NCBI RefSeq assembly: GCF_015689175.1
Contig: NZ_CP065047.1
Coordinates: 4,092,001 to 4,156,000, forward strand
DNA: 64,000 nt
Source: Mycobacterium kubicae
GTDB taxonomy: Bacteria; Actinomycetota; Actinomycetes; Mycobacteriales; Mycobacteriaceae
Direction: 5' to 3'
Within the stretch, counting starts at the first letter, position 1. Each line of letters starts with the position of its first letter. Shown here in pieces: positions 10,332 through 11,383 of this stretch. The notes beneath the pieces were generated by a model that was given only the letters and a program-made list of their open reading frames with translations, had not been told where the DNA came from and did not search any database. Position numbers and translations under genes: made by a program.

Positions 10332-11008
10332 AGCGTGCGGGGCAGTGATCGGGGTGATTTTTTCCGTTCCCGGGCTTTGCGTTCCGGGGCGGACAGTAGG
10401 TACGCCGCCACCACTCCGGCCAGCGCACCGCACAAATGGCCTTGCCATGACACCCCGCCGCATCTGCCCAGGACCGGCAAAGCGCCCCACAGGACACCGC
10501 CGTAAACAAACAACACGACCAGCCCGATGACGATGTCGCGCAACCTGCGGACGAAGAATCCGAAGACCACCAGGAAGGCCAGCCAGCCGAAGATCAGTCC
10601 CGACGCCCCGATGTGGTCGGTGGGACCACAGCTACTGCCGACGTTGCCGATCAGCCAGGTTCCGAACCCGCCCAGGATCCACACGATCGCCGTGGCCCAG
10701 ACGAAACGTGCCAGACCGGCCAGCGTCATCAGGAAGCCGAGCACCAGCATCGGGATCGTGTTGGCGATCAGGTGCTGCCAGTTGGCGTGCAGCACCGGCG
10801 CGAAGACGATTCCCCAGAGTCCGTCGGTGGTCAGTGGCCTGATGCCGTTGCGGTCGAGCCGGCCGCCGCTCAACTGGTCGATCAGTTCCACCAGATAGAG
10901 CAATGCCACAAACGTGAGGATCGTGGTTCCGCCGACCACCCATCGCGGCCGCTTCCCCACCGGGGTCGCCGGTGTTCGCGAGTGCCCTGTCGGGCCGGTC
11001 ATGCCCAT
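10328..11008 (-). CDS. Rhomboid-family intramembrane serine protease
   Basis: 226-residue polytopic membrane protein (Rv1337-like). The active-site serine motif GASG (in DHIGASGLIFG) and the catalytic histidine segment (SWQGHLCGALAG) are present, on adjacent membrane helices; about six helices are predictable. Substrate unknown. The ATG at 11008 is chosen because a purine-rich AAAGGGCAGG precedes it and the start overlaps the cysM stop as expected from M. tuberculosis. The longer frame to 11077 would merely translate the decayed cysM end. Coupled by ATGA to murI. Confidence 0.9.
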   Translation of the reverse strand: MGMTGPTGHSRTPATPVGKRPRWVVGGTTILTFVALLYLVELIDQLSGGRLDRNGIRPLTTDGLWGIVFAPVLHANWQHLIANTIPMLVLGFLMTLAGLARFVWATAIVWILGGFGTWLIGNVGSSCGPTDHIGASGLIFGWLAFLVVFGFFVRRLRDIVIGLVVLFVYGGVLWGALPVLGRCGGVSWQGHLCGALAGVVAAYLLSAPERKARERKKSPRSLPRTL

Positions 11009-11101
11009 ACCTGCCCTTTCGGCCTCTTCGGCGTCATCCAGGCTACCGGCAACGACGCCGGTGGAAGAGACCTCCATCGGCGTCGGCGGCGACGAACGCG
11101 C
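10999..11101 (-). pseudogene. cysM: 3' remnant of cysM (O-phosphoserine sulfhydrylase)
   Basis: The ~100 bp between cysO and the rhomboid gene are too short for cysM (about 323 codons), yet they encode, in shifting frames, pieces that match the remembered CysM C-terminus. These are AFVAADA (family ALVVADAG), then STGVVAGSLDDAE (family STGAYAGSLDDAE), then GQVWA and TGA (family GQLWA-stop). Two net 2-base losses separate the three segments. The 5' ~285 codons are deleted right up to the cysO stop. The final TGA still overlaps the rhomboid start. CysM normally makes cysteine from O-phosphoserine using CysO-thiocarboxylate as sulfur donor. Confidence 0.8.
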
Positions 11102-11383
11102 TCAACCGCCCGCGACGGCGGGCAGGATGGTGACCGAGTCACCGTCGGCTATCGCGGTGTCCAAGCCGCCGGAGAATCGGACGTCCTCGTCGTTGACGTA
11201 GATGTTGACGAAGCGGTGCAGCTTGCCGGGAGAAGACTTGTCGACGAGGCGCTCGGAGATACCCGAGTAGTTGGCCTCCAAGTCCGAGATGACCGCTCCG
11301 AGCGTCTCACCGCTCGCCGAGACGCGCTTCTGACCTCCGGTGTGCGGCCGCAGGATGGTCGGGATGGACACGGTGACGCTCAT
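11102..11383 (-). CDS. cysO: CysO sulfur-carrier protein
   Basis: 93-residue ubiquitin-like/MoaD-like protein ending in AVAGG; its C-terminal glycine is converted to a thiocarboxylate that donates sulfur. The beta-grasp pattern VTVSIPTILRPHTGG...NIYVNDEDVRF...GDSVTILPAV is intact and length is normal. Expected partners are Mec (next gene upstream, 20 bp away) and CysM. Here cysM is reduced to a remnant immediately downstream, so CysO keeps its processing peptidase but has lost its genomic sulfur acceptor. Confidence 0.95.
   Translation of the reverse strand: MSVTVSIPTILRPHTGGQKRVSASGETLGAVISDLEANYSGISERLVDKSSPGKLHRFVNIYVNDEDVRFSGGLDTAIADGDSVTILPAVAGG

What the first reader, a model, noticed from the sequence alone, without database searches (positions are those of the whole stretch)
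10999..11383. cysM is deleted, leaving a frameshifted 3' stub between intact cysO and the rhomboid gene
Seen: only ~100 bp lie where a ~970-bp gene should be, and they encode, in shifting frames, AFVAADA, STGVVAGSLDDAE and GQVWA-stop, the consecutive C-terminal pieces of CysM as I remember it. The stub begins right at the cysO stop, suggesting one deletion followed by small indels. Known: CysM uses CysO-thiocarboxylate to make cysteine, and Mec releases it. Inference: the CysO route to cysteine is broken here, although cysO and mec remain intact, unless cysM has moved or CysO has another user.
Basis: partly seen in the sequence, partly recalled or inferred. Interest (0 to 1): 0.75.

Follow-up and report, generated by a model that had tools for sequence, protein, structure and literature searches.

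The report
Lost cysM, retained cysO sulfur carrier
This mycobacterium lost the enzyme that turns the sulfur carrier CysO into cysteine, but natural selection has kept CysO almost unchanged since then, which suggests that CysO does a second job nobody has identified yet.

Summary
The 104 nt after cysO align to the end of cysM (nt 867-970 of 972) with four one-base gaps (score 100; best of 300 shuffles 39). No CysM is found elsewhere in this genome. It is not an assembly gap: the sister genome shares the junction.

The loss is old and one of several. Of 395 Mycobacterium genomes, 236 have CysM and CysO, 148 have neither, none has CysM alone, and 11 have CysO alone.

Two points go further. (1) The stub probably persists because it carries the promoter of rhomboid-murI: GGTANCCT lies upstream of the rhomboid in 84 of 89 loci, and of none of four neighbouring genes. 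(2) CysO is not a relic: without CysM its dN/dS is 0.07-0.08, and 48 of 50 columns invariant in CysM-bearing species are unchanged. Mec has drifted.

So the CysM route is gone, but CysO very probably has another, unknown user. Loss of cysM or cysO in some species is in print; my searches listed no paper on cysO kept without cysM.

The parts
11819..12862 (-). nyl-like (P1/DmpA-type) peptidase gene upstream of mec; open frame
   Evidence: ORF; conserved at this place in relatives; the P1/DmpA label is recalled
11404..11817 (-). mec, JAMM metallopeptidase, 137 aa from a GTG start; motif HSH-x7-S-x2-D intact, but the usually conserved TE two residues after HSHT reads AA here
   Evidence: PDB relatives 2kks, 2kcq and JAMM1
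11102..11383 (-). cysO, 93 aa, intact, ends in GG
   Evidence: full-length match to CysO of M. tuberculosis, 3dwg_C, E 1.5e-52
10999..11100 (-). cysM 3' stub, corresponding to cysM nt 867 to the stop, with four one-base gaps; about 866 nt of cysM are missing
   Evidence: score 100, shuffle maximum 39; frames
11040..11045 (-). TAGCCT, probable -10 element of the rhomboid-murI transcript; the conserved octamer GGTAGCCT is 11047-11040
   Evidence: GGTANCCT upstream of the rhomboid in 84 of 89 loci, 0 upstream of murI, mbl, mec, nyl; codon conservation in intact cysM; CGNTANNNT promoter form in Cortes et al. 2013 (passages)
10328..11002 (-). rhomboid gene (Rv1337-type); start ATG overlaps the old cysM stop; a second possible start ATG lies at 11008
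9519..10331 (-). murI, next gene downstream
   Evidence: ORF; 270-aa protein, conserved in relatives

Best explanation
In an ancestor of this lineage one deletion removed cysM from just after the cysO stop to about codon 289 (shown). The last ~100 nt stayed because they hold the promoter, ribosome-binding site and start of the downstream rhomboid-murI transcript (inferred from conservation). Cysteine is still made by CysE/CysK1 and probably by CysK2-type enzymes (genes seen, use inferred). CysO is still made, still loaded with sulfur by MoeZ (gene intact, loading inferred), and passes it to, or is attached to, an acceptor other than CysM (inferred from selection; rivals 1 and 3 are narrower forms of this). 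Mec remains as the peptidase of whatever CysO adduct is formed, with changed specificity at least in the M. gordonae group (inferred).
For: Stub alignment. Shared junction with sister genome L069. No CysM in 8 of 8 state-B and 12 of 12 state-C genomes examined, present in 5 of 5 state-A genomes. Census of 395: 0 of 236 CysM genomes lack CysO, 11 of 247 CysO genomes lack CysM. CysO dN/dS without CysM 0.076 (M. gordonae group, 21 pairs) and 0.074 (own vs L069), against 0.078-0.243 in four groups with CysM. Fisher p 1.1e-7 to 4.8e-13 in four pairs. 48 of 50 A-invariant CysO columns unchanged in 11 cysM-less sequences. MoeZ model score 791 over cut-off 647. Promoter octamer 84 of 89.
Against: No expression or biochemical data. 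148 of 395 genomes have neither CysM nor CysO, so CysO is dispensable in many species. Mec is less constrained here (dN/dS 0.20-0.24, against 0.08-0.13 with CysM), which also fits slow decay. In two cysM-less genomes the CysO GG is no longer terminal. Five of 89 loci lack the octamer within 160 nt, and in three of them I saw none at all. The tree allows one or more losses in the gordonae/asiaticum/own clade.
Confidence: 0.66

Rival explanations
1. CysO still makes cysteine: CysK1, CysK2 or CBS has taken over from CysM and accepts CysO-thiocarboxylate, with Mec releasing cysteine as before.
For: Mec is retained next to cysO in all 12 cysM-less rows that I read (10, G429 and G451). This genome has two CysK2-like proteins; sources name relatives of the first CysK2 or phosphoserine-dependent S-sulfocysteine synthase.
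Against: G006 and G010 show only CysK1-, CBS-, Cds1- or ThrC-level matches and no CysK2-level one, so CysK2 is not a general answer. CysK1 of 8 cysM-less genomes has only one weakly B-enriched column (135) compared with 12 C and 5 A genomes.
Confidence: 0.25
2. cysO and mec are dying relics that have simply not been lost yet.
For: Most cysM-less relatives have lost mec and cysO as well (56 of 80 named loci are state C). Mec is relaxed. One genome, G345, seems to have all three genes broken.
Against: CysO has 4 nonsynonymous changes where 46 are expected at the synonymous rate (own vs L069), with similar deficits in three other pairs. cysO is open to its GG in 10 of the 11 genomes, while the stub beside it in this genome collected four gaps.
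Confidence: 0.07
3. CysO, MoeZ and Mec act as a small ubiquitin-like protein-modification system (modifier, activating enzyme, deconjugase).
For: Nearest curated models for CysO and Mec are archaeal SAMP1 (50.8 bits, cut-off 60) and desampylase (71.9, cut-off 130). Mec of the M. gordonae group reads HSHP, as in Rpn11-like and two other JAMM proteins of the PDB, where 50 of 50 Mec rows from genomes not in state B read HSHT.
Against: Scores are below the curated cut-offs. HSHP is one change shared by descent in one group; this genome keeps HSHT. No conjugate has been seen.
Confidence: 0.2
4. Assembly gap, or cysM moved elsewhere.
For: None found.
Against: The locus lies inside a 5.96-Mb contig, genome 100% complete; the sister genome has the same junction; no second CysM.
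Confidence: 0.02

Closest known systems
mec-cysO-cysM cysteine pathway of M. tuberculosis (Rv1334-Rv1336; numbers partly recalled)
   Same: Same gene order up to cysO; CysO matches 3dwg_C over its full length; MoeZ present
   Different: cysM is missing here and nowhere else in the genome; a 3' stub remains
Mycobacterium species in print without cysM beside the rhomboid or without cysO: MAC and M. marinum, M. leprae pseudogenes (Kateete 2010, passages); M. avium without cysO (Voss 2011, table 3)
   Same: cysM absent next to the rhomboid, or cysO absent
   Different: What I saw of those papers does not describe cysO kept while cysM is lost. Voss 2011 also lists a cysM, MAV_0444, for M. avium; I did not check which protein that is
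Archaeal SAMP1 / HvJAMM1 desampylase / E1-like UbaA
   Same: Same three protein types: beta-grasp carrier ending in GG, JAMM peptidase, E1-like enzyme
   Different: CysO and Mec score below those curated cut-offs, and MoeZ belongs to its own MoeZ model; conjugation untested
Thermus TtuB and actinobacterial carriers shared between pathways (recalled; listings)
   Same: A sulfur carrier serving an acceptor other than CysM
   Different: No acceptor identified here

Membership tests
CysO/CysM/Mec cysteine pathway | CysO: MoaD/ThiS-type carrier ending in GG | tested here: met
CysO/CysM/Mec cysteine pathway | Mec JAMM motif | tested here: met
CysO/CysM/Mec cysteine pathway | CysM (O-phosphoserine sulfhydrylase) present | tested here: not met
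CysO/CysM/Mec cysteine pathway | MoeZ that can activate CysO | tested here: inconclusive
   Gene intact, MoeZ model over cut-off; activity not testable
Mycobacterial TANNNT promoter | -10 hexamer, CGN before it, conserved upstream of the gene | tested here: met
   form from Cortes 2013 (passages)
Mycobacterial TANNNT promoter | Mapped transcript start just downstream of the hexamer | not testable with these tools
   No transcript data held; Rv1337 is not named in the main text of Cortes 2013
SAMP / desampylase system | Match to curated SAMP1 and desampylase models above cut-off | tested here: not met
   50.8 vs 60 and 71.9 vs 130 bits
SAMP / desampylase system | Covalent attachment to proteins | not testable with these tools
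   needs an experiment

The most novel reading that the evidence does not exclude
After CysM was lost, CysO, MoeZ and Mec continue as a CysM-independent system: CysO is either a sulfur donor to an unknown acceptor or a ubiquitin-like protein modifier removed by Mec. If so, CysO in CysM-bearing mycobacteria may have this second role too.
Probability: 0.4. Interest if true: 0.85.

Novelty: new variant of a known kind. Interest (0 to 1): 0.56.

Why it matters
In the passages seen, CysO is treated as the servant of CysM. Species that lost CysM but still select for CysO are natural knock-outs in which a second function can be looked for without the known one; they include M. gordonae, a rarely pathogenic culture-collection species. 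The embedded promoter also gives a simple reason why nearly every cysM deletion seen leaves the gene's tail, and warns that deleting cysM completely may silence rhomboid and murI.

Tried and rejected
CysK2 as the replacement partner: rejected as a general answer, since G006 and G010 show no CysK2-level match. A remodelled CysK1: no B-specific pattern beyond one weak column. A second CysM in G015 (57% fragment at a contig end): it is the start of a CysK2-like protein. CysO as a backup MoaD: in Voss 2011, table 1, CysO with MoeZR did not restore nitrate reductase in an E. coli moeB mutant while MoaD1 and MoaD2 partly did (passages). Right-hand deletion ends before codon 309 as a test of the promoter: the loci with a reported cysM match fit, but I judged this weak alone because chance could give it. 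Paper searches that could have shown a described cysO-without-cysM state listed none; the library is open-access only, and I read passages of four papers, plus the first part of one discussion.

Full report
Where it lies. The window is G000:C1:4092001-4156000 of an unnamed Mycobacterium genome (6.02 Mb, 3 contigs, 100% complete). On the minus strand the genes run nyl-like peptidase (12862-11819), mec (11817-11404), cysO (11383-11102), stub, rhomboid (11002-10328), murI. In 13 of 14 CysO loci from other genera of the order, cysM sits beside cysO (two further, weaker second copies listed had no locus and were not examined).

The stub is cysM. The 104 nt after the last cysO sense codon align to cysM nt 867-970 of 972 with four one-base gaps, local score 100. 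Against the 16 cysM genes used the scores run 59-100; the best of 300 dinucleotide shuffles is 39. About 866 nt of cysM are gone. The closest relative (L069, apparently the same genome as G010; CysO 97%, rhomboid 91%) has the same junction just after the cysO stop, so the deletion predates their split and is not an assembly fault.

No CysM elsewhere. The genome has 8 PALP-fold matches. IlvA, CysK1, Cds1 and TrpB pass curated cut-offs. ThrC and CBS are labels that I recall from their sequences and neighbours; they were not put to a model. Two are CysK2-like (best model SbnA family, below cut-off). For the first of these, sources name relatives 'CysK2' and 'S-sulfo-L-cysteine synthase (3-phospho-L-serine-dependent)'. 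A CysE-like acetyltransferase (label recalled) lies next to CysK1, and MoeZ is intact (791 bits, cut-off 647). A true CysM query finds 85-89% matches in 5 of 5 genomes with the full operon, but as best full-length match only a CysK1-like protein (39-42%) in 8 of 8 genomes with cysO but no cysM and in 12 of 12 that lack the module.

How common. I call the full operon state A, cysO and mec without cysM state B, and module absent state C. Of 80 named loci, the best by rhomboid similarity, 17 are A (one, L129, has an in-frame stop near the end of cysM), 6 are B, 56 are C, and 1 (M. genavense, L101) has cysM split over two frames (the script's count of 7 for B includes L101). Some C loci keep longer cysM pieces (L080, L107). 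Of 395 genomes drawn evenly from the genus at 95% completeness or more, 236 have CysM (E 1e-70 or better) and 247 have CysO (E 1e-15 or better). None of the 236 lacks CysO, 11 of the 247 lack CysM, and 148 have neither (lists retyped and compared). Of the 11, G345 seems to have all three genes broken; 10 have cysO open to its GG, though in two the GG is no longer the end. Of the 236, the three I looked at because of odd scores (G092, G238, G253) have a split, shortened or fragmentary cysM in the stretch read, so 236 slightly overstates intact CysM.

Tree. I used nyl, rhomboid, murI and MBL, 3261 columns and 89 taxa (11 short loci dropped). The own genome and L069 are sisters (support 100) and fall with the M. 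asiaticum (C) and M. gordonae (B) groups in one clade (support 98). M. simiae JAL-560 (B) falls instead with the M. kansasii group (A), support 100; deeper nodes between these are weak, 59-66. G429, not in the tree, is a third case: its rhomboid is only 71% like ours, and its deletion left cysM from codon 304. So, unless the locus has been passed between lineages, cysM alone was lost at least three times with mec and cysO kept.

CysO is still selected. Without CysM, cysO dN/dS is 0.076 in the M. gordonae group (7 genomes, 21 pairs, dS 0.38) and 0.074 between own and L069 (dS 0.27). In four groups with CysM, 14 genomes in all, it is 0.078, 0.243, 0.127 and 0.188. Own vs L069 differ by 17 synonymous and 4 nonsynonymous changes, where 46 nonsynonymous are expected if neutral (Fisher p 1.1e-7); three other pairs give p 3.1e-8 to 4.8e-13. 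Of 50 columns invariant in 31 A sequences, 2 change in any of 11 B sequences, both mildly (L to V, V to I). Two B rows in that alignment are cut short at the C-terminus by the local match; their DNA shows the GG and stop.

Mec has moved. Its dN/dS is 0.20-0.24 in B against 0.08-0.13 in A, still far from neutral (p 3.2e-7 or lower in four pairs). Of 73 A-invariant columns, 20 change in 10 B sequences, several beside the active site. 38 of 38 rows from Mycobacterium genomes not in state B and 12 of 12 rows from other genera read HSHT. Nine of 15 B rows, all of the M. gordonae group (7 or 8 genomes, since some rows repeat a genome), read HSHP, as do solved Rpn11-like and two other JAMM proteins; own, L069, M. 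simiae and G429 keep HSHT. This is one change shared by descent.

Why the tail stays. In 31 intact or nearly intact cysM genes, codon 309 is GGT in 29 (GGT is 18% of glycine codons in the set) and codon 310 is AGC in 30 (16% of serine codons); one row is shifted by a codon. GGTANCCT lies within 160 nt upstream of the rhomboid in 84 of 89 loci (two loci seem to repeat a genome), including 62 of 66 in states B and C, and upstream of none of murI (89 loci), MBL (83), mec (33) and nyl (80). Two of the five misses have it further upstream (G219, as GGTAACCT; L096); in the other three (L089, L122, L141) I saw none. In M. europaeum and its relatives almost nothing of cysM seems left but CCGGTAACCTGCAG before the ATG. 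TANNNT, often preceded by CGN, is the common M. tuberculosis promoter form (Cortes 2013, PMC3898074, passages). I infer a -10 element for rhomboid-murI; no transcript data were available.

What is already known. Kateete 2010 (PMC2989971, passages) reports cysM upstream of the rhomboid except in M. marinum and MAC, and pseudogenes in M. leprae. Voss 2011 (PMC3227635, passages and first part of the discussion) lists M. avium without cysO, though with a cysM (MAV_0444) that I did not check; it shows that MoeZR thiocarboxylates CysO and that CysO does not replace MoaD in their test. In the passages seen of the 2024 eLife paper (PMC11361707), CysO appears only as CysM's substrate and as a co-induced gene; it reports that M. 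tuberculosis cysM mutants grow normally in rich medium but do worse in defined medium and under several stresses. The searches named in Tried and rejected listed no paper on cysO kept without cysM.

Verdict. The deletion is real, old, and one of several. The CysM route is gone. The surprising part is that CysO is not decaying. The partner is unidentified; replacement by CysK1 or CysK2, another sulfur acceptor, and protein modification all remain open.

Noticed in passing
L192 (G429) 1501-1842: The cysM deletion joined cysO in frame to the cysM tail: CysO ...AVAGG is followed by ACRPGAYAGSLDDAEEALDGQLWA, so GG is internal and would need trimming, perhaps by Mec.
   Followed up: partly
L076 (G063), cysO end: cysO has no stop after GG and reads on for QCEVYR.
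   Followed up: partly
L025-L038, cysO ends: 8 of 14 CysO rows from other genera carry 1-9 residues after GG, against 2 of 35 Mycobacterium rows outside state B: Mec may also mature CysO there.
   Followed up: no
L071, L072, L073, L076, L179, L180, L181, L189: Mec of the M. gordonae group has HSHP where 50 of 50 Mec rows from genomes not in state B have HSHT.
   Followed up: yes
L006 (G000:C1:3780675-3781529): The second CysK2-like protein reads NPGGMKDRP where the first reads NPGGSMKDRP: one residue is missing next to the likely PLP lysine.
   Followed up: no
L129, L101, L191 (G092): Other damaged cysM copies: an in-frame TAG near the 3' end (L129) and the same frame change near codon 126 in M. 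genavense L101 and in G092, possibly one genome.
   Followed up: no
L180 (G219) and L074, L086, L094, L110, L112, L114, L119, before the rhomboid: MIRU-like repeat units (label recalled) lie between the promoter octamer and the rhomboid start in several species; L180 holds about three tandem copies.
   Followed up: no
G136: This M. gordonae-type genome has about six CysK2-level matches, while G006 and G010 have none.
   Followed up: no
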